Of a DNA stretch of 64,000 nt, positions 10,513 to 61,013 are shown piece by piece. The position numbers were made by a program, and so were the translations under genes. Below the pieces are notes generated by a model. It did no database searches. It was not told the origin of the DNA and saw only the letters and a list, made by a program, of their open reading frames with translations. Within the stretch, counting starts at the first letter, position 1. Each line of letters starts with the position of its first letter. The DNA lies in the NCBI RefSeq assembly GCF_018327705.1, contig NZ_BNEM01000002.1, forward strand, positions 62,001-126,000, in the 5' to 3' direction. This DNA is from Catellatospora sp. TT07R-123 (lineage in GTDB: Bacteria; Actinomycetota; Actinomycetes; Mycobacteriales; Micromonosporaceae).

Positions 10513-10536
10513 ATCCGTTTCACCTCCGCGCCGGCC

Positions 10537-11322
10537 TCACGGCCAGCGGTCGCTGGGCTTGAACGCGCGACGCAGCGCGTCCCGCCGAGCCTGTGCCCCC
10601 CACACGGTCACCCGCCACAGCGCCTCTTTCACGATAGACCCGCTCATCTTGCTCGCGCCGTGCTCGCGCTCGGCGAAGGTGATGGGGACCTCCACGATCC
10701 GGAAGCCGTGGCGGAACGTGCGCCAGGTCAGCTCGACCTGGAAACTGTAGCCCTGCGACGCCACCGTCTCGACCTCGATCTTGCGTAGGACGTCGGTGCG
10801 GTACGCCCGGTAGCCGCCGGTGGCGTCCTTGACGCCCATGCCCAGCACGGTGCGGGTGTACAGGTTCCCGCCGCGTGACAGCAGCAGCCGGTGCAGCGGC
10901 CAGTTGACGACCTTGCCGCCCCTGGTCCAGCGGGACCCGATGACCGCGTCGGCGCCGCGCAGCGCGTCCAGCAGCAGCGGCAGCTGCTCCGGGGCGTGCG
11001 AGCCGTCGGCGTCCATCTCCACCGCGGCGTCGTAGCCGTGCTCGTCGGCCCATGCGAACCCGGCCAGGTACGCCGCCCCGAGGCCCTGCTTGCCGGGCCG
11101 GTGCATGACCTTGATCCGGTCGTCGGCGGCGGCCATCGCGTCGGCGATCGCACCGGTGCCGTCGGGGCTGTTGTCGTCGGCGATGAGCACGTCGACCTGC
11201 GGGGTCGCGGCCCGGACCCGCCCGACGATCGAGCCGATGTTCTCCTTCTCGTTGTACGTCGGGATGATCACCAGGACCCGGCCCACACCGGGGTAGCCGT
11301 CCTCGCCGCTTGCCTGACCCAC
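10537..11322 (-). CDS. ppm1: Polyprenol monophosphomannose synthase (Ppm1 catalytic domain)
   Basis: 261 residues, GT2 family. It transfers mannose from GDP-mannose to polyprenyl phosphate at the inner membrane face, supplying donors for protein O-mannosylation and lipoglycans. The fold starts with VLVIIPTYNEKENIG, then DDNSPDGT, the metal-binding DXD-type motif EMDADGSH and RGGNLYTRTVLG. It lacks the C-terminal membrane domain of some dolichol-phosphate mannose synthases. GTG at 11322 is chosen because GAGGAGG lies 6 bases upstream; longer readings overlap lnt. The neighbouring lnt gene is fused to ppm1 in Mycobacterium tuberculosis, which supports the assignment. Confidence 0.92.
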   Translation of the reverse strand: MGQASGEDGYPGVGRVLVIIPTYNEKENIGSIVGRVRAATPQVDVLIADDNSPDGTGAIADAMAAADDRIKVMHRPGKQGLGAAYLAGFAWADEHGYDAAVEMDADGSHAPEQLPLLLDALRGADAVIGSRWTRGGKVVNWPLHRLLLSRGGNLYTRTVLGMGVKDATGGYRAYRTDVLRKIEVETVASQGYSFQVELTWRTFRHGFRIVEVPITFAEREHGASKMSGSIVKEALWRVTVWGAQARRDALRRAFKPSDRWP

Positions 11323-11348
11323 CCGGGGCCTCCTCTGGTCGGGGCCGG

Positions 11349-12977
11349 TCACGCTCCGCGCGACCGGCGCCGGCGCAGCACAGCGGCTGCGATCAGCACC
11401 CCAGCCGCGGCCAGCGCCGCGGCGGCCTCCGGCCACGCACCCACCCTGGTCGCGAGCGTGGACCCGGTGCCCAGCCGCAGCTGCCGTACCACCACCGCTT
11501 CGGTATTGAAACCAGTTGCATCATGCACAGAACCGTCAGCAGTTACAAAACCGGACACACCGACAGTCGAGGCCATCAGGCTGTCGCGGCCGTGCTCGAC
11601 GGCCCGCAGCCGCACCATCGCCAGCTGCTGGGTCGCCTCGGCGACGTCGAACGTCGCGTTGTTGGTCTGCACCGCCAGCAGCTGCGCCCCGTGCCGCACG
11701 GTGTCGGCCACGACGTCGTCGTAGGCGACCTCGAAGCAGATCACGTCGCCGACCTTCGCCGGGCCCAGCGTCAGCACCCCGGGCTCGGTCCCGGCGACGA
11801 AGTCCGTACGCAGCAGCTTCGCCTGGTTCGTGATCGCCTGCGCGATCGGTTCGACGATCGGGCGCAGCGGCAGGTACTCGGCGAACGGCACCGGGTGCTG
11901 CTTGAGGTACATCTGCTGCGGCGGCCCGTACGCCGACTGCCGGGGCAGCCACACCATGCCCGCGTTGCGGGACTGGCCCTCGCCCGGACCGGACAGGACC
12001 GCGCCGACCAGGATCGGGGCGTTGATCGCGGTCGCGGCCTGGTCGATCGCGGCGGCGGCGTCGATGTTGCGCAGCGGGTCGATGTCGGAGGCGTTCTCCG
12101 GCCAGATCACCAGGTCGGGACGGGGCAGCTCACCGGCGCCGACGCGGCGGGCCAGGTCGAGGGTGGCACGGGCGTGGTTGTTGAGCACGGCCTGGCGCTG
12201 GGCGTTGAAGTCCAGGCCGAGCCGCGGCACGTTGCCCTGCACGATCGCGACGGTCACCGGCGCACCGGCGGGGGTCGCGGCGGGCACCGCCAGGCCGATC
12301 CCGGCCACGACGAGCGCCCCGGCCGCGTAGGCGCCCACGGCGCCCCAGCGCGGCCCGGCGACGGCGTCACCGTCGGCGGGACGTGCGCGTACGGCCAGCC
12401 ACGCCGCGGCCAGCAGGCCGCCGCACAGCGCGACCGCGAACGTCACCAGGGGGGCGCCGCCGAACCGGGCCAGCATCAGCGCGGGCGCGTCGGCCTGGCT
12501 GAACGCGAGCCTGCCCCACGGGAACCCGCCGAACGGGGCCCGGTCGCGCAGCGCCTCCTGCGCCGTCCACAGCAGCGCCACCGCCAGCGGCCACAGCCCG
12601 GCCCGGCGCGCCGCCAGCGGGGTCACCCACGCGAGCGCGACACCCAGCAGCGCGAGGTACGACGCCTGGAACAGCGCCAGCAGGATCCACGGCGCATACC
12701 CGACGTGCAGGTTCGTCCACGCCAGCAGCGGCGCGAAGAACACCAGTCCCGAAATCAGACCCAGCCCGGCACCGGCGCGCAGCCGCCGCCCGTGCACCGC
12801 CACCGCCAGCAGCGCCACCCCGACCGGGGCGGCCCACCACTGGCCGTACGGCGGGAACGACACCAGCAGCGCCAGCCCCGACAGGACAGCCAGCCCGAAC
12901 GCGGTCCACAGCCGGGGGCCGGAGCCGGGGGTGCGGGCGGGCGGGCCGGGCGGGGTCGCCGGGGCCAGGGTCTGCAC
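11349..12977 (-). CDS. lnt: Apolipoprotein N-acyltransferase
   Basis: About 542 residues. The N-terminal half has six or more membrane helices (LWTAFGLAVLSGLALLVSFPPYGQWW onwards) and an FGGFPWGRL loop. The C-terminal half is a nitrilase-like periplasmic domain with the catalytic triad in WPENASD (Glu), YLKQHPVPFAEY (Lys) and VICFEVAYDD (Cys), and a last C-terminal membrane helix. It adds the third acyl chain to the N-terminal cysteine of lipoproteins. Start is placed at a GTG (12977) 9 bases after AGGTGA; GTGs at 12983 and 12986 are possible. It forms an operon with ppm1 27 bases downstream. Confidence 0.92.
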   Translation of the reverse strand: MQTLAPATPPGPPARTPGSGPRLWTAFGLAVLSGLALLVSFPPYGQWWAAPVGVALLAVAVHGRRLRAGAGLGLISGLVFFAPLLAWTNLHVGYAPWILLALFQASYLALLGVALAWVTPLAARRAGLWPLAVALLWTAQEALRDRAPFGGFPWGRLAFSQADAPALMLARFGGAPLVTFAVALCGGLLAAAWLAVRARPADGDAVAGPRWGAVGAYAAGALVVAGIGLAVPAATPAGAPVTVAIVQGNVPRLGLDFNAQRQAVLNNHARATLDLARRVGAGELPRPDLVIWPENASDIDPLRNIDAAAAIDQAATAINAPILVGAVLSGPGEGQSRNAGMVWLPRQSAYGPPQQMYLKQHPVPFAEYLPLRPIVEPIAQAITNQAKLLRTDFVAGTEPGVLTLGPAKVGDVICFEVAYDDVVADTVRHGAQLLAVQTNNATFDVAEATQQLAMVRLRAVEHGRDSLMASTVGVSGFVTADGSVHDATGFNTEAVVVRQLRLGTGSTLATRVGAWPEAAAALAAAGVLIAAAVLRRRRSRGA

Positions 12978-13067
12978 CGTCACCACTTCACCTATCTGTC
13001 GCAGTCGGGCGCTTCGCGCCGCCCAGGGAAGATCACACCCGGGGTGCTGCACAGGCTACACAAGAAT

Positions 13068-13094
13068 CGGGGCGCGGCCGACGGCCGCGCCCCG
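13068..13094 (-). terminator. Hairpin terminator downstream of the kam operon
   Basis: An 11-bp perfect stem (13068-13078 with 13084-13094) and a 5-base loop are followed on the minus strand by ATTCTTG. It lies in the 348-base gap between the end of the lysine operon (13326) and the start of lnt (12977). The rest of the gap shows no open reading frame or other motif that I can support. Confidence 0.6.
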
Positions 13095-13325
13095 CACTCC
13101 CCAACTCCTACAGGCGGCCGCGGCCGGTGGCCTTCGGGCCGATCCGCGCCAAACCGGCTGCCGGGCGTCGGATCGTTGTCTACTGGCCACCGCCGTGCCG
13201 CCTGCCGCACCATCGAGTCGATCGCTGATGCGGCGGAGGACCTTACGACGGTACGCGTGAGCGCACCGCCGGGTCAATTTGAGCATGCGTGCACGCAGCG
13301 TGACCATTACCCGTCCGGGGACTCG

Positions 13326-14657
13326 TCACCGCAGCTCAGCGGCGAGTAACGCACCCGCGGCGGCCGGATGTTCGGCGGCCAGCAGCCCCGCCGCCGCCAG
13401 GATGTAGGACGAGTCGACGAAGGTGCGGGGGGCACGTGGCAGGGGCCACCCGCCCGCGCTGTCGGTCAACCCGGCCGCCAGGATCCGCTGCGCCACCGGC
13501 GGCGGGTTGTGCCGCAGCACCCCGCCGGACCCGATCGCGAGCGCCACGTCACGCAGGTCACGACCGCCACGACGCGGCCCGCCGGTCACGGCAGCCTCAC
13601 CCCGGGCGTGACGGCGCAGCGCGACGGTCACCGCCAGCTCGGCCAACCGCCAGTCGACAGCCTGCTCCAGGGCACTGTCGGCGACGAAACCAGGATGCTC
13701 GGCCCGCAGGTCGGCGGCCTGCTGCAACGCATGGGTGTCGTCGTGGGGCAGCAGCTTCTCCCCCAGCGCCGCCGCGACGACACCGGGCGCCGACCAGCGC
13801 ATCCCCAGGTCCCCCTCGACGGTACGGGCCGCCCACAGCGTCCCGGCGACCTCGTCGCGGACCCCGGCCAGCCGCTCGGCGTCGGGGATCAGCACCGAGT
13901 ACACGTCGGTGGTCGCCCCGCCCACATCCACGACCAGCAGATCCTGGCCCAGGTTCGAGGCCAGCAGCTCGACGCCGGTCAGGACCGCGTCCGGGGTCGC
14001 CGCCCGCACCAGGGACGCGAACCGGGGACCCCGCGACAGCTTCTTGCCGCCGATGACGTGCTGGAGGAACACCTGCCGGATCGCCGCCCGCGCCGGACCC
14101 GGATCCAGGGTCCCGATGGCGGGCAGCACGTTGGCCACCGCGACCGTCGGCACCCCGGCGTCGGCGAGCAGGGCGTGCAGCCGGTCGCGGCAGTCGGCGT
14201 TGCCGGCCAGCACGACCGGGACCCGCCATCTGGCCTTGGCCAGGCGGGTCGCATTGGCCGTGATGGTGTCGGCGTCGCCGCCGTCGGTGCCGCCCACGAG
14301 GAGCACCACGTCCGGTCGGGCGGCCCGCAGCGCGGTGAGGCCGTCGCGGTCGAGGACCCCGGCGGCGACGTGGACGACCTTCGCCCCGGCCGACAGCCCG
14401 ACCCGGTGCCCCGCCTGCGCGGTGACCAGGCGCTCGTACCCGATGACGGCCAGGCGCAGCCCGCCACCCGCCGACGAGCACACCAGCAGCCCGTCGGGGG
14501 TGTGCCCGGTCGCCGCGACCGCCGCGTCCAGGCCGTGCAGCACGTCCGTGCCGACGGTCGTGCGGTGGCTGCCGGTGGCGACCAGCCGCCCGCCGTCGGT
14601 GTCGACCACGGCCGCCTTCGTGAACGTCGACCCGACGTCGACGCAGCAGATCAGCAC
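13326..14657 (-). CDS. GlmL/MutL-type actin-fold protein, probable reactivase of the B12 aminomutase
   Basis: 443 residues of the glutamate mutase accessory (GlmL/MutL) family. Actin-like phosphate motifs are visible: CVDVGSTFTKAAVVD at the N-terminus and LLVVDVGGATTDVYSV near residue 240. The family hydrolyses ATP and is thought to release damaged cobalamin from B12 mutases. Here it ends the operon carrying lysine 5,6-aminomutase, so it probably reactivates KamDE and would correspond to KamB of anaerobe clusters; that equivalence is inference. The start codon is GTG, 1 base after the kal stop. Confidence 0.75.
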   Translation of the reverse strand: MLICCVDVGSTFTKAAVVDTDGGRLVATGSHRTTVGTDVLHGLDAAVAATGHTPDGLLVCSSAGGGLRLAVIGYERLVTAQAGHRVGLSAGAKVVHVAAGVLDRDGLTALRAARPDVVLLVGGTDGGDADTITANATRLAKARWRVPVVLAGNADCRDRLHALLADAGVPTVAVANVLPAIGTLDPGPARAAIRQVFLQHVIGGKKLSRGPRFASLVRAATPDAVLTGVELLASNLGQDLLVVDVGGATTDVYSVLIPDAERLAGVRDEVAGTLWAARTVEGDLGMRWSAPGVVAAALGEKLLPHDDTHALQQAADLRAEHPGFVADSALEQAVDWRLAELAVTVALRRHARGEAAVTGGPRRGGRDLRDVALAIGSGGVLRHNPPPVAQRILAAGLTDSAGGWPLPRAPRTFVDSSYILAAAGLLAAEHPAAAGALLAAELR

Positions 14658-58285: not shown

Positions 58286-58377
58286 GACCCGACCCCGGTC
58301 CGCCGCGCCTCACCGACCGTGGCGGACCGGGCACCGTGCGGCGTTCCGGATCGGACAGCCGTAATACACTGCGCCGC

Positions 58378-58704
58378 ATGGACTCCACGCCCGGCGGCAC
58401 GCTCTCGGTCATCACCGTCGAAGGTTCCCCCGTGGACGGCGAGAAGGGCGTCTTCTCGGCCGCGCGCAAGGCCGCCGCCCACGTCGGCGTGCTCGACGCC
58501 GGGGTGCTGGCCGGGAACCTGTCCGCGGTCTGCGACCAGCTCGGCCAGGTCGTCGCGGCCGCCGAGACCGCCCGCGGCGGCTACGAGCTGGAGTCGTTCG
58601 AGGTGTCGCTGGACGTGTCGGCGACCGGCGAGGTCCGGATGATCGGGTCGGTGTCCAGCGAGGTCCGGGGCGGCATCAAGCTGACCTTCCGGCGCCGCGC
58701 GTGA
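58378..58704 (+). CDS. Pepco-like effector-associated small protein
   Basis: 108 residues. After an N-terminal strand (GTLSVITVEGSPVDGE) a helical middle (SAARKAAAHVGVLDAGVLAGNLSAVCDQLGQVVAAAETA) leads to a beta-rich end YELESFEVSLDVSATGEVRMIGSVSSEVRGGIKLTFRRRA. This end matches the pattern of Pepco/Trypco-type domains that accompany trypsin- or caspase-like peptidases in bacterial conflict systems. Its TGA overlaps the GTG start of the caspase-Hsp70 gene (GTGA), so the two are made together. The domain name is from memory of the pattern; role (sensor, adaptor or inhibitor) is unknown. Confidence 0.65.
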   Translation: MDSTPGGTLSVITVEGSPVDGEKGVFSAARKAAAHVGVLDAGVLAGNLSAVCDQLGQVVAAAETARGGYELESFEVSLDVSATGEVRMIGSVSSEVRGGIKLTFRRRA

Positions 58705-61013
58705 ACACCGCGATCGTCGTCGGCTGCTCGTCGTACGAGGATCCCGACATCGCGCCGCTGCGGTTCGCCGCCCGCGACGCCCAGGCCGTGGCCCAGGTGC
58801 TGCGGGACGGCTGCGACGTGCCCGAGCAGCGGCTGGTCCTGATGCACGACCAGGCCGGCGACCCGTGGCTGCGCCCGACGAAGTCGAACATCCTGCGCCA
58901 GCTGGTGCGGGCGCGGGACCTGACCCCGGACGGCATCCTCTACTTCTTCTTCAGCGGCCACGGCATCCAGTCCCGGTCGGGCACGCAGTACCTGCTGCCG
59001 CTGGACTGCGTCGCCGAGGAGCTGGAGGACACCGCGCTGCCGTTCGACCGGATCGTGCAGCACCTCGGGCGGGCCGACGCGCCCCACACCGTGCTGATGC
59101 TCGACGCCTGCCGCAACGTCGTCGAGGGCGGCAAGTCGGCGGGCGGGGCCGGGCAGGTCGACATCGCGGCCCTGTGCCCGTCCGGGGTGGTGTCACTGTG
59201 CTCGTGCCAGCCCGGCCGCGTGTCGTACGAGGCCGAGGCGTTGCAGTCGGGGATCTTCTCGGCCGCGCTGTGCGAGGCGCTCAGCGACGTCGGGCGCTGC
59301 CGCACCGTGCACGAGCTGGACACCTACCTGGCCCGGCGGGTGCCCGAACTGGCCGCCGCGCACGGCAAGCCGCGCCAGACGCCGTTCTCGCGGGTCGAGC
59401 CGCTGGGCGTGCAGCATCTGCAACTGGTGTCACCGGCGCGCGGCGGTGCCTGGACGGCGGCGACCCCGCTCGGCACCGAGGTCCGGAGCCGGCCGGTCCC
59501 GCAGCTGCTGCGGCTGTCGGCGAAACCCGTGGTCGCGGTGGACTTCGGGACGTCGTACTCCCTGGTCGCGGCCCTGGACGACGCGGGCAGGCCGGTGGTG
59601 CTGCCCGGCCCGGACAACCGCCTGGTCGTGCCGTCGGTGGTGCACTTCCTGCCCGGCTCGGACTACCTGGTGGGCACGGCGGCCGTGGAGGCGGAGCGGT
59701 TCCGGCCCGAGGCCACGATCCGGCACGTCAAGCGGCGCCTGGGCTCCGACCGGGGGTACGCCGTCGACGGCCGCTCGGTCAGTCCCGAGCTGGTCGCCAG
59801 CCTGATCCTGCGCTCGCTGCGCCGCAACGCCGAGGAGGCGCTCGGCGCCCCCGTCACAAGGTGTGTCGCCTCCTATCCCGCCAACTTCAACCGGGCCCAG
59901 GTCGCCGCGCTGCATGAGGCGTTCCGGCTGGCGGAGTGGGAGGTCATCCGGTTCGTCGGCGAACCCAACCTCGCCGGAATCGTCACCGACGCGGGCGAGG
60001 ACGACCAGATCCTCGTCGTCGACCTCGGCGGCGGCACGTTCGACGTCGCGCTGCTGGAGTACGAGCACGGCGTCGCCGAACTCAAGTCATCGGTGGGCAG
60101 CCAGTTCATCGGCGGCCTCGACTTCGACGAGGCACTGTTCGACTACGCCGTGGACCAGCTGCGCGGCCGCCACGGCTATCACAACGAGCTGACCCCGGAG
60201 ATCGAGGCGCTGATCCGGCAGGAGGCCGAGCGGGCCAAGCGCGAACTCGGGCGGCAGGAGGCGGCGTCGCTGCTGCTGACCGACCTCCCCGACGGGCAGC
60301 AGGGCTACCGCGACGTCAGCATCGGCATCGACCGGCCGACGTTCCGGTTGCTGACGCAGCACATGTCGGCCGGGATCCGCGCCAAGATCCGCGAAGCGCT
60401 GCGGTACACCCTGCCCGGAGAAGACAAACCGGTGGTGTTCCTGGCCGGCCAGGGCGGACGGATCTTCACCGTCGGCGAGATCCTGGCCGAACTAGGTCTC
60501 GACCGAGTCGTCGGCGGATCGCCGGAGACCGCGGTGGTCCGCGGTGGCGCGGTGCAGGCCGGGATCCTCACCGGGCAAGTCAACGACCTGCTGATACTGA
60601 ACCTGCTCCACTACGACATCGTGGTCGGCTGCACGAAGACCGCCCATCCCGACAACGACGAGGACTTCGCGGTCGTCGCCGTCGATCCGGTCCGCCACCG
60701 CGCCCATGAGAAACTCGTCGAGGCGCAGACCACGATCCCGACCAAGCGCAGCGAGGCTTTCCAGCTCTCCGACGGCCCTGGCCGGGCGCATGTGGTGGAG
60801 GTGTTCGAGCGGCTGGCCGGTGAGCTGCAGCCGATCGAACGCCGCGAGGTCAGCTCCCGGACCGGGTATGTCGAGGTGATCATCGACGTCGATGCCAACG
60901 CGCTGGTCCGGGTCGAGGTCAGGGAGGCCGACCGCGCCGAGTTCGTCGCGTCGCGCAAGCGGGTCCGCGAGAGCGTACGCCAGGAGCTCGAACGCCAGCG
61001 CCGCAAACCCTGA
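58701..61013 (+). CDS. Caspase-like peptidase fused to an Hsp70-type ATPase
   Basis: 770 residues. Residues 1-240 form a C14 caspase-like domain with the His-Cys dyad in FFFSGHGIQ (His87) and VLMLDACRNV (Cys137). Residues 275-640 form an Hsp70/DnaK ATPase: phosphate 1 VAVDFGTSYSLVAAL (Asp281), phosphate 2 VVDLGGGTFDVAL (441-448), the SQFIGGLDFDE motif, and adenosine-site elements VFLAGQGGRIF and AVVRGGAVQAGIL. The last 130 residues resemble a short DnaK substrate-binding region (VVGCTKTAHPDNDEDFAVVAVDP; RTGYVEVIIDVDANALVRVEVRE) followed by a charged helix. It may use substrate recognition by Hsp70 to switch on proteolysis. No signal peptide, so cytoplasmic. Confidence 0.9.
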   Translation: MNTAIVVGCSSYEDPDIAPLRFAARDAQAVAQVLRDGCDVPEQRLVLMHDQAGDPWLRPTKSNILRQLVRARDLTPDGILYFFFSGHGIQSRSGTQYLLPLDCVAEELEDTALPFDRIVQHLGRADAPHTVLMLDACRNVVEGGKSAGGAGQVDIAALCPSGVVSLCSCQPGRVSYEAEALQSGIFSAALCEALSDVGRCRTVHELDTYLARRVPELAAAHGKPRQTPFSRVEPLGVQHLQLVSPARGGAWTAATPLGTEVRSRPVPQLLRLSAKPVVAVDFGTSYSLVAALDDAGRPVVLPGPDNRLVVPSVVHFLPGSDYLVGTAAVEAERFRPEATIRHVKRRLGSDRGYAVDGRSVSPELVASLILRSLRRNAEEALGAPVTRCVASYPANFNRAQVAALHEAFRLAEWEVIRFVGEPNLAGIVTDAGEDDQILVVDLGGGTFDVALLEYEHGVAELKSSVGSQFIGGLDFDEALFDYAVDQLRGRHGYHNELTPEIEALIRQEAERAKRELGRQEAASLLLTDLPDGQQGYRDVSIGIDRPTFRLLTQHMSAGIRAKIREALRYTLPGEDKPVVFLAGQGGRIFTVGEILAELGLDRVVGGSPETAVVRGGAVQAGILTGQVNDLLILNLLHYDIVVGCTKTAHPDNDEDFAVVAVDPVRHRAHEKLVEAQTTIPTKRSEAFQLSDGPGRAHVVEVFERLAGELQPIERREVSSRTGYVEVIIDVDANALVRVEVREADRAEFVASRKRVRESVRQELERQRRKP

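What the first reader, a model, noticed from the sequence alone, without database searches (positions are those of the whole stretch)
58378..61013. Caspase-Hsp70 fusion coupled to a Pepco-like small protein
One polypeptide joins an intact caspase dyad (His87, Cys137) to an intact Hsp70 ATPase (Asp281 and the 441-448 phosphate loop) and a short DnaK-like substrate region. A 108-residue protein with a Pepco/Trypco-like C-terminus overlaps its start by 4 bases. Established: caspase-like and trypsin-like effectors with such small partner domains occur in predicted NTP-dependent conflict systems of multicellular bacteria. Inferred: Hsp70 recognises a misfolded, phage or foreign protein and licenses proteolysis leading to dormancy or death. 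It is not flanked by phage or transposon genes, so it may be a core rather than mobile system.
Basis: partly seen in the sequence, partly recalled or inferred. Interest (0 to 1): 0.72.

Follow-up and report, generated by a model that had tools for sequence, protein, structure and literature searches.

The report
Caspase joined to an Hsp70 chaperone
A soil actinobacterium carries a two-gene switch in which a caspase-type protease is fused to a shortened Hsp70 chaperone and sits beside a small partner protein, which suggests that these bacteria may use a protein-folding machine to decide when to turn on a self-harming protease.

Summary
Gene A (58378-58704, 108 aa) is a Pfam Pepco protein; gene B (58701-61013, 770 aa) is a caspase followed by an Hsp70 with ATPase domain, DnaK-like linker and substrate-binding beta domain but no lid. 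It is not a one-off: 45 of 55 retrieved proteins, this one included, have the fusion, with His87 and Cys137 in 45 of 45. In the host family 5 of 354 genomes (6 loci) carry it, and all 6 loci have Pepco directly upstream. New here: the other Pepco-caspase genes of the family carry an Hsp90-type ATPase instead, so 17 of 17 such loci (two identical) join the caspase to a heat-shock ATPase. Pepco also accompanies CHAT and zincin-like peptidases. The pair is accessory, not core: in five congeners its two neighbours lie 86-1466 bp apart without it. Best reading: a chaperone-gated caspase, with Hsp70 as sensor, caspase as output and Pepco as regulator; direction of control and immune or death purpose are inferred. 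It resembles EACC1-caspase systems but lacks EACC1. New variant of a known kind.

The parts
58365..58370 (+). putative -10 element (TACACT) 7 nt before the Pepco ATG, suggesting a leaderless transcript
   Evidence: CGTAATACACTGCGCCGCATG is identical in window, L037 and L038; not seen in L039/L040; promoter and leaderless reading are inference
58378..58704 (+). Pepco gene, 108 aa, soluble small partner
   Evidence: Pfam PF24393 E 5.4e-25; highest 19-residue Kyte-Doolittle mean 1.35
58701..61013 (+). caspase-Hsp70 fusion gene, 770 aa, GTG start overlapping the Pepco stop
58707..59360 (+). caspase (Peptidase_C14) domain, residues 3-220
58959..58961 (+). catalytic His87 codon
   Evidence: invariant 45 of 45
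59109..59111 (+). catalytic Cys137 codon
   Evidence: invariant 45 of 45
59121..59156 (+). low-confidence (probably disordered) loop, residues 141-152, with Lys145; predicted self-cleavage site
   Evidence: pLDDT <50; 44 Lys + 1 Arg of 45 at position 145; cleavage is inference
59523..60575 (+). Hsp70 nucleotide-binding domain, residues 275-625
   Evidence: D281, K344, E421, T446, D448 in 45 and D441 in 44 of 45
60585..60602 (+). DnaK-like interdomain linker, residues 629-634 (DLLILN)
   Evidence: Leu 43, Leu 42, Leu 40, Asp/Asn 44 of 45 at positions 631-634
60603..60929 (+). substrate-binding beta domain, residues 635-743, with TTIPT motif
60933..61004 (+). single C-terminal helix, residues 745-768, in place of the Hsp70 lid
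   Evidence: 36 of 45 fusions have 80 or fewer residues from position 742 on, two of them ending before it

Best explanation
A chaperone-gated caspase. The lidless Hsp70 half is an ATP-driven sampler of exposed peptide segments; its NBD-linker-SBD-beta allostery (docked, ATP-bound rest state versus undocked, client-bound state) sets a threshold and controls the N-terminal caspase, which is the output. Pepco, probably made from the same transcript, is a dedicated soluble regulator of the peptidase (holding it off, or presenting it or its substrate). When client load passes the threshold (phage or other foreign protein production, or severe misfolding), the caspase is released, clips itself after Lys145 in the loop behind the catalytic Cys, and cuts further targets after basic residues, giving dormancy or death. 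Shown: the domains, intact catalytic residues, conserved linker and SBD-beta, absent lid, pairing in every locus read, accessory distribution. Inferred: direction of control, Pepco's role, autoprocessing, target, immune or death purpose.
For: Domain calls; dyad 45/45 and Hsp70 catalytic positions kept in 44-45 of 45; linker and SBD-beta motifs conserved; model superposes on ATP-bound open DnaK (103). No lid in the model, and 36 of 45 fusions have 80 or fewer residues there: suits sampling rather than folding. Sister Pepco-caspases have an Hsp90-type ATPase as large module: 17 of 17 family loci (16 if the duplicate is dropped) pair the caspase with a heat-shock ATPase, so the variable half looks like an input device. 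Pepco accompanies caspase, CHAT-like and HExxH genes, so it seems to answer to the peptidase, not to Hsp70. Pepco and caspase distances correlate (Mantel r 0.77, 0 of 5000 permutations, n=16). A plasmid kinase-Hsp70 fusion (85) repeats the layout enzyme + Hsp70. Position 145 basic in 45 of 45 in a low-confidence loop.
Against: No experiment. Among the neighbours I read or scanned no DnaJ, GrpE or defence gene was recognised, though I made no dedicated search for them. The GGK loop is not shared by the Hsp90-branch caspases. The Mantel result is confounded by common descent, and the two trees place the Hsp70 branch next to different relatives. Kaur et al. read variable C-terminal domains as effectors, the opposite direction. 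The Pepco model is poor (pLDDT 57.7), so its mode of action is open. Pairing could not be checked for about 40 of the 45 fusions. Two of the three non-caspase partners in the family match their peptidase family only below cut-off.
Confidence: 0.47

Rival explanations
1. The caspase is the regulator and Hsp70 the effector: on a signal sensed through Pepco the caspase cuts itself free, releasing an Hsp70 that binds or ties up invader proteins (the model of Kaur et al. for EACC1-caspase systems).
For: PMC7159879 section 33 proposes this for caspase + variable C-terminus. A conserved segment (W251, G258, E260, R262) between caspase and Hsp70 could be a cleavage region.
Against: A lidless Hsp70 holds clients only loosely (recalled). 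Use of two unrelated heat-shock ATPases with the same Pepco-caspase unit fits an input role better than an effector role, in my judgement.
Confidence: 0.2
2. A stress-time quality-control protease: Hsp70 delivers misfolded host proteins to the fused caspase for clipping, with Pepco as adaptor; no immunity or death.
For: Intact NBD, linker and SBD-beta; small adaptor-like partner.
Against: Rare and accessory (5 of 354 genomes; neighbours that meet without it), unlike housekeeping proteostasis; caspases cut specific sites rather than degrade (general knowledge); Pepco also accompanies CHAT-like and zincin genes without an Hsp70.
Confidence: 0.2
3. A developmental programmed-cell-death switch of a mycelial actinobacterium, not directed at phages.
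For: The host family is mycelial actinobacteria (general knowledge); caspase with a regulatory ATPase.
Against: Not found in 8 of 11 sampled genomes of the same genus, so not needed for the life cycle of the genus.
Confidence: 0.09
4. Fusion by chance or assembly error.
For: None beyond rarity.
Against: 44 further proteins with the same fusion; conserved catalytic residues.
Confidence: 0.01

Closest known systems
EACC1-caspase two-gene systems (System 4 of Kaur et al. 2020, PMC7159879; section 33 read, other passages seen)
   Same: 5' small constant component + 3' N-terminal caspase with a variable C-terminal module; prevalent in actinobacteria.
   Different: The small gene is Pepco, without a membrane helix, not EACC1; NCBIfam caspase_w_EACC1 scores 76.5 against a cut-off of 140. 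The section names some of 'up to 50' C-terminal domains and Hsp70 is not among those named; its figure and source data were not seen.
Pepco-caspase-iHD-CE-Hsp90-type proteins with wHTH-HSP90_Na-assoc repeats (Pfam PF24393, PF24401, PF24410)
   Same: Same small partner, same gene order, caspase at the N-terminus, heat-shock ATPase in the large module.
   Different: Hsp90-type GHKL ATPase, in eight of eleven also iHD-CE and wHTH repeats, instead of Hsp70; 1356-1684 aa. The paper behind these Pfam names is recalled as Nicastro et al. 2023 (NAR gkad879) and is not held.
EACC2-caspase systems (PMC8195603, passages seen)
   Same: Constant module + caspase + variable C-terminus, compared by its authors to EACC1.
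   Different: EACC2 is fused in front of the caspase and the partner gene is TRADD-N or others; no Pepco or Hsp70 in the passages seen.
canu caspase-nuclease defence (PMC12799240, passages seen)
   Same: Caspase-family protease in a small operon; experimentally anti-phage, caspase activates a partner.
   Different: Ig-like domains and a gated nuclease; neither was found here.
CoCoNuT Hsp70 modules (PMC11090510, passages seen)
   Same: Hsp70 NBD/SBD unit recruited into a predicted defence system.
   Different: Fused to McrB/McrC-type parts, ATP-binding motifs described as degenerate, RNA targeting proposed; here ATPase residues are kept and the partner is a caspase.
Caspase homologues with chaperone-type domains in the 2012 census (PMC3501461, passages seen)
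   Same: A prefoldin-like (Prefoldin_2) and an AAA domain joined to cyanobacterial metacaspases: the idea of a caspase with a chaperone domain is not new.
   Different: Hsp70, DnaK and Hsp90 occur 0 times in its main text.
DnaK
   Different: 28-30% identity, no lid, N-terminal caspase, far below the DnaK equivalog cut-off (203 vs 648 bits).

Membership tests
Pfam Pepco (PF24393) | profile score above the gathering cut-off | tested here: met
   88.5 bits vs 27
Caspase family (Peptidase_C14) | profile score above cut-off and His-Cys dyad | tested here: met
   65.8 bits vs 21.4; dyad 45/45
Hsp70 superfamily | NBD with phosphate-binding motifs, linker, SBD-beta | tested here: met
DnaK chaperone (equivalog) | NCBIfam cut-off score; helical lid | tested here: not met
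   203.2 vs 648 and 200.1 vs 822.55 bits; no lid in model
EACC1-caspase System 4 | 3' gene with N-terminal caspase and variable C-terminal module | tested here: met
EACC1-caspase System 4 | 5' gene encodes EACC1 with a conserved transmembrane helix | tested here: not met
   Pepco is the only Pfam hit at E<=1; highest 19-residue hydropathy 1.35 in the window's Pepco and 0 of 38 database Pepcos above 1.6
EACC1-caspase System 4 | NCBIfam caspase_w_EACC1 cut-off | tested here: not met
   76.5 vs 140 bits
Pepco-peptidase pair (my grouping) | Pepco gene abutting a peptidase gene | tested here: met
   window. All 20 over-cut-off places in the family: caspase 17; CHAT-like 2 (L043 31.7 bits, L042 20.5 bits with cut-off 24); HEVAH gene 1 (M78 16.1 bits, cut-off 22)
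canu caspase-nuclease system | adjacent gated nuclease gene | tested here: not met
   neighbours are aminopeptidase P, a DUF6289-like small gene and ABC permease genes
Anti-phage defence system | protection in a phage challenge | not testable with these tools
   PADLOC gives only its generic 'caspase' model, E 2.6e-18

The most novel reading that the evidence does not exclude
Actinobacteria have built a caspase switch read out by the two universal ATP-dependent chaperone folds: the same Pepco-caspase unit has been joined in one branch to Hsp70 and in another to an Hsp90-type ATPase, so that client traffic through a chaperone cycle (for example the burst of nascent phage protein) directly triggers a self-cleaving protease. 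That would make folding load itself the danger signal in a bacterial immune or death system.
Probability: 0.33. Interest if true: 0.83.

Novelty: new variant of a known kind. Interest (0 to 1): 0.6.

Why it matters
In animals caspases and Hsp70 meet as separate proteins (general knowledge); here one bacterial polypeptide joins a caspase to an Hsp70 with its catalytic residues intact, and a sister family uses an Hsp90-type ATPase. If folding state gates the protease, the trigger of a prokaryotic caspase becomes directly testable with two purified proteins, ATP and peptides, and the 'what is sensed' question of peptidase-type conflict systems gets a concrete candidate answer. The source names shown for these proteins are mostly 'Hsp70 family protein' or DnaK, two of them with 'caspase-like' added, so the caspase and the small partner are easily missed.

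Tried and rejected
Core/housekeeping gene: rejected from rarity and from congeners whose neighbours meet without the pair; whether it was gained or lost there was not tested. Plasmid or phage cargo: none of the 286 plasmid records with a match covers 80% of the protein at one place, no phage record matches the caspase half at E<=1e-5, and a scan of IMG/VR with six exact peptide patterns found no relative; these are limited collections. EACC1 membership: not met. Trypco membership of the small gene: not met; a remote link between Pepco and Trypco2 is possible (L055 carries Trypco2 over and Pepco below cut-off).

TAL-effector matches of the caspase half (best E 2.4e-24) are sums of many repeats of 2-14 bits each in the alignments printed, and were set aside as artefact; the metacaspase hits there (E 5e-4 to 4e-3) agree with the family call. 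The Pepco structure prediction is too poor (pLDDT 57.7), so I ran no fold search with it. The fold searches of the fusion were filled by Hsp70 rows, so the caspase half was barely tested by structure. Eleven of 45 fusions have a 19-residue window above hydropathy 1.6, none above 2.0; the peaks shown lie in Hsp70 or caspase core motifs, so I do not read them as membrane helices. (The database Pepco values printed were taken from gapped rows; one search repeats both counts without gaps.) Pairing of fusion and Pepco could not be read for most database fusions, whose contigs were not fetched; equal contig lengths (347080 for P0005/P0058, 3717 for P0014/P0060) only hint at two more pairs, and the contigs of P0011 and P0007, where the DNA does show Pepco (L039, L040), gave no Pepco row, so absence from that list says nothing. 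Literature: 10 searches listed no paper on a bacterial caspase-Hsp70 fusion; several listings were the top 20 of many hundreds or thousands. Hsp70 occurs 0 times in the main texts of PMC3501461, PMC6426788 and PMC4933709. The library lacks most subscription papers and the paper I recall for the HD-CE names.
Full report
WHAT IS THERE. Gene A (58378-58704, +, ATG) encodes 108 aa and gene B (58701-61013, +, GTG) 770 aa; they overlap by four bases. Gene A is a Pfam Pepco protein (88.5 bits, cut-off 27); gene B has a caspase domain at residues 3-220 and an HSP70 match. NCBIfam's best model is DnaK at 203 bits against a cut-off of 648; caspase_w_EACC1 scores 76.5 against 140. So it belongs to the broad families but to neither narrow one. 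The window is G000:C2:62001-126000 of a 9.17-Mb genome; the only relatives that the genome-contig scan returned are from Catellatospora tritici and Catellatospora sp. KI3 (81% identity in the best segment), so I take the host to be a Catellatospora or a close relative.

THE CASPASE HALF. His87 and Cys137 are invariant in 45 of 45 fusions, the window's own protein included. The model's one stretch below pLDDT 50, residues 141-152, lies just behind Cys137. In that loop position 145 is Lys in 44 and Arg in 1 of 45, and Gly144 is nearly invariant, while the residues after it vary. Orthocaspases cut after positively charged residues (abstract of PMC6426788, seen in the listing), so self-cleavage after Lys145 is a concrete prediction. 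It would be specific to this branch: the Hsp90-branch caspases do not share the GGK motif.

IS THE FUSION A FAMILY. A search with residues 1-275 returned 55 proteins at E<=0.001 among the 8000 candidates scored (candidates were capped); 45 of 55 carry both PF00656 and PF00012, nine (P0047-P0055) have caspase without Hsp70 at much lower similarity, and one (P0043, 550 aa) has caspase only. Named hosts include Catellatospora, Plantactinospora, Micromonospora, Jidongwangia, Amycolatopsis, Actinomadura and Catenulispora, plus MAGs labelled Limnocylindrales and Streptosporangiaceae. It is rare: at E<=1e-20, 5 of 354 genomes of the host family, 1 of 394 in a class sample (the host itself), 2 of 397 in an order sample (the host and one of the five).

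IS PEPCO ITS REGULAR PARTNER. Pepco occurs in 21 of 354 family genomes, at 22 places, 20 of them (in 19 genomes) over the Pfam cut-off. All 6 fusion loci (5 genomes; one genome has two identical copies on two contigs and 6% contamination) have Pepco directly upstream: overlap of 4 bases in five, a 4-base gap in one. That the five loci other than the window encode the Hsp70 fusion rests on their equal protein and contig lengths with P0002, P0003, P0007 and P0011, which carry both domains. Of the 20 over-cut-off places, 17 have a caspase gene directly downstream, 2 (L042, L043) lie behind a gene with CHAT similarity (20.5 bits, below the cut-off of 24, and 31.7 bits), and 1 (L051) precedes a gene with an HEVAH motif and a sub-threshold M78 match. 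The two places below cut-off: L055 carries Trypco2 plus a weak Pepco match and no caspase was found near it; L028 was not examined. Outside the family, 5 further genomes of a 396-genome phylum sample match: G410 with CHAT (46.1 bits); G475 with a caspase by my own profile (E 8e-31) and iHD-CE, though Pfam's caspase model was not listed for it at E<=0.01; G1101 overlapping a gene with an HEFGH motif by 17 nt; and two below cut-off (G918, G848) with no caspase found within about 1.5 kb. So Pepco keeps company with peptidases of at least two unrelated folds, caspase/CHAT and probably zincin; it seems to answer to the peptidase.

THE UNEXPECTED PART. The 11 family Pepco-caspases that lack Hsp70 are 1356-1684 aa. 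Eight have caspase, iHD-CE and wHTH-HSP90_Na-assoc matches in Pfam; three (L052-L054) have only the caspase over cut-off. The stretch behind iHD-CE in the eight (alignment A5) shows the motifs of a GHKL ATPase (recalled motifs), and its profile finds 57 distinct PDB sequences at E<=0.01, all named as Hsp90-family or 'heat shock' proteins, best HtpG at 4.7e-9. Pfam's own GHKL models reach only E about 0.01 on single members (6 of 8 and 5 of 8 members at E<=1). The A5 profile also hits L052-L054 (E 3e-74 to 1e-76) and L091 (6e-166), but not the window protein, three other caspases of this genome (L093-L095) or the membrane-type neighbours of the CHAT loci. Hence 17 of 17 Pepco-caspase loci of the family (16 without the duplicate) combine the caspase with a heat-shock ATPase: 6 Hsp70, 11 Hsp90-type. 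Pepco and caspase tree distances correlate over 16 pairs (Mantel r 0.77, 0 of 5000 permutations; the duplicate L036 and the loci without caspase were left out). Shared descent contributes to that, and the two trees differ in where the Hsp70 branch sits: next to L052-L054 for Pepco, next to L041/L044/L045 with support 0.30 for the caspase. A plasmid of Streptomyces anulatus has a protein-kinase-Hsp70 fusion, a second case of a signalling enzyme in front of an Hsp70.

CORE OR ACCESSORY. In the genus, 3 of 11 sampled genomes have the pair (G000, G090, G091). In G083, G087, G084, G085 and G086 the same two flanking regions (aminopeptidase P and sugar-type ABC permease genes) lie 86, 144, 583, 1081 and 1466 bases apart, against 3296 in the window. 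No DNA similar to the window's stretch between them (blastn E<=1e-8) was found there; what fills the three longer gaps was not examined, nor whether the pair was gained or lost. In G088 and G092 the two flanks lie far apart, and in G089 the permease was not found at E<=1e-60. One homologue (L039) has a DDE_5 transposase gene 85 bases downstream. No plasmid, phage or viral-contig copy was found within the limits told under Tried and rejected.

HOW IT MOST LIKELY WORKS. Two facts point to the large module as input and the caspase as output: in both branches the module is a chaperone-type ATPase with its nucleotide-site motifs kept, and the partner Pepco stays with the peptidase when the large module changes. 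A lidless Hsp70 exchanges peptides fast (recalled), which suits a sampler. I propose ATP-bound rest, client-driven undocking, release of the caspase, self-cleavage after Lys145, then cleavage of targets; Pepco restrains or directs the protease. The steps after 'intact ATPase and intact dyad' are inference. The main rival is the published view for EACC1 systems, in which the caspase frees the C-terminal domain as the effector.

KNOWN OR NEW. The two-gene layout with constant small gene, caspase and variable C-terminus is that of System 4 in Kaur et al. 2020 (section 33 read), but its defining membrane component EACC1 is not here. That section names only some of up to 50 C-terminal domains, so Hsp70 could be among the unnamed ones; the figure and source data were not seen. 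An older census already lists cyanobacterial caspase homologues with a prefoldin-like or an AAA domain (PMC3501461, passages). Pepco, iHD-CE and wHTH-HSP90_Na-assoc are Pfam families, so the Hsp90 branch has been noticed by their authors (recalled; not verifiable here). None of the ten listings named under Tried and rejected showed a paper on the Hsp70 branch. I therefore call it a new variant of a known kind.

Noticed in passing
L037 about 12870-14265 and L036 about 10535-11930 (G091, C. tritici-like): A broken second copy of part of the Hsp70 lies about 1 kb downstream of the fusion, mixed with a copy of permease-gene DNA: trace of a local duplication.
   Followed up: partly
L039:12639-13568: DDE_5 transposase gene (E 4.1e-51) 85 bp downstream of the fusion gene.
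   Followed up: partly
L105:6119-8542 (Streptomyces anulatus plasmid pYINM00001): Protein kinase-Hsp70 fusion of 807 aa annotated only as Hsp70 family protein.
   Followed up: partly
L041, L044-L050, L052-L054, L091: Caspase-type proteins with an Hsp90-type ATPase that Pfam's GHKL models barely detect.
   Followed up: yes
L095:6202-9499 (G000, C2): Another caspase of the same genome, with VWA and sub-threshold SBP_bac_11 matches, has a 126-aa gene directly upstream with a hydrophobic Gly/Ala/Leu-rich stretch: perhaps a true EACC1-type system; Pfam gave no hit for the small gene.
   Followed up: partly
L055:9198-9734 (G184): One 178-aa protein carries Trypco2 (45.2 bits) and a sub-threshold Pepco match (23.3 bits), hinting that the two partner families are related.
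   Followed up: partly
L092:4218-5757 (G1101): Pepco gene overlapping a gene with an HEFGH motif by 17 nt.
   Followed up: no
window:58040-58285: 81-aa apparently secreted gene with a DUF6289 match below cut-off (24.0 vs 27.3 bits) upstream of Pepco, with a counterpart in L038.
   Followed up: no
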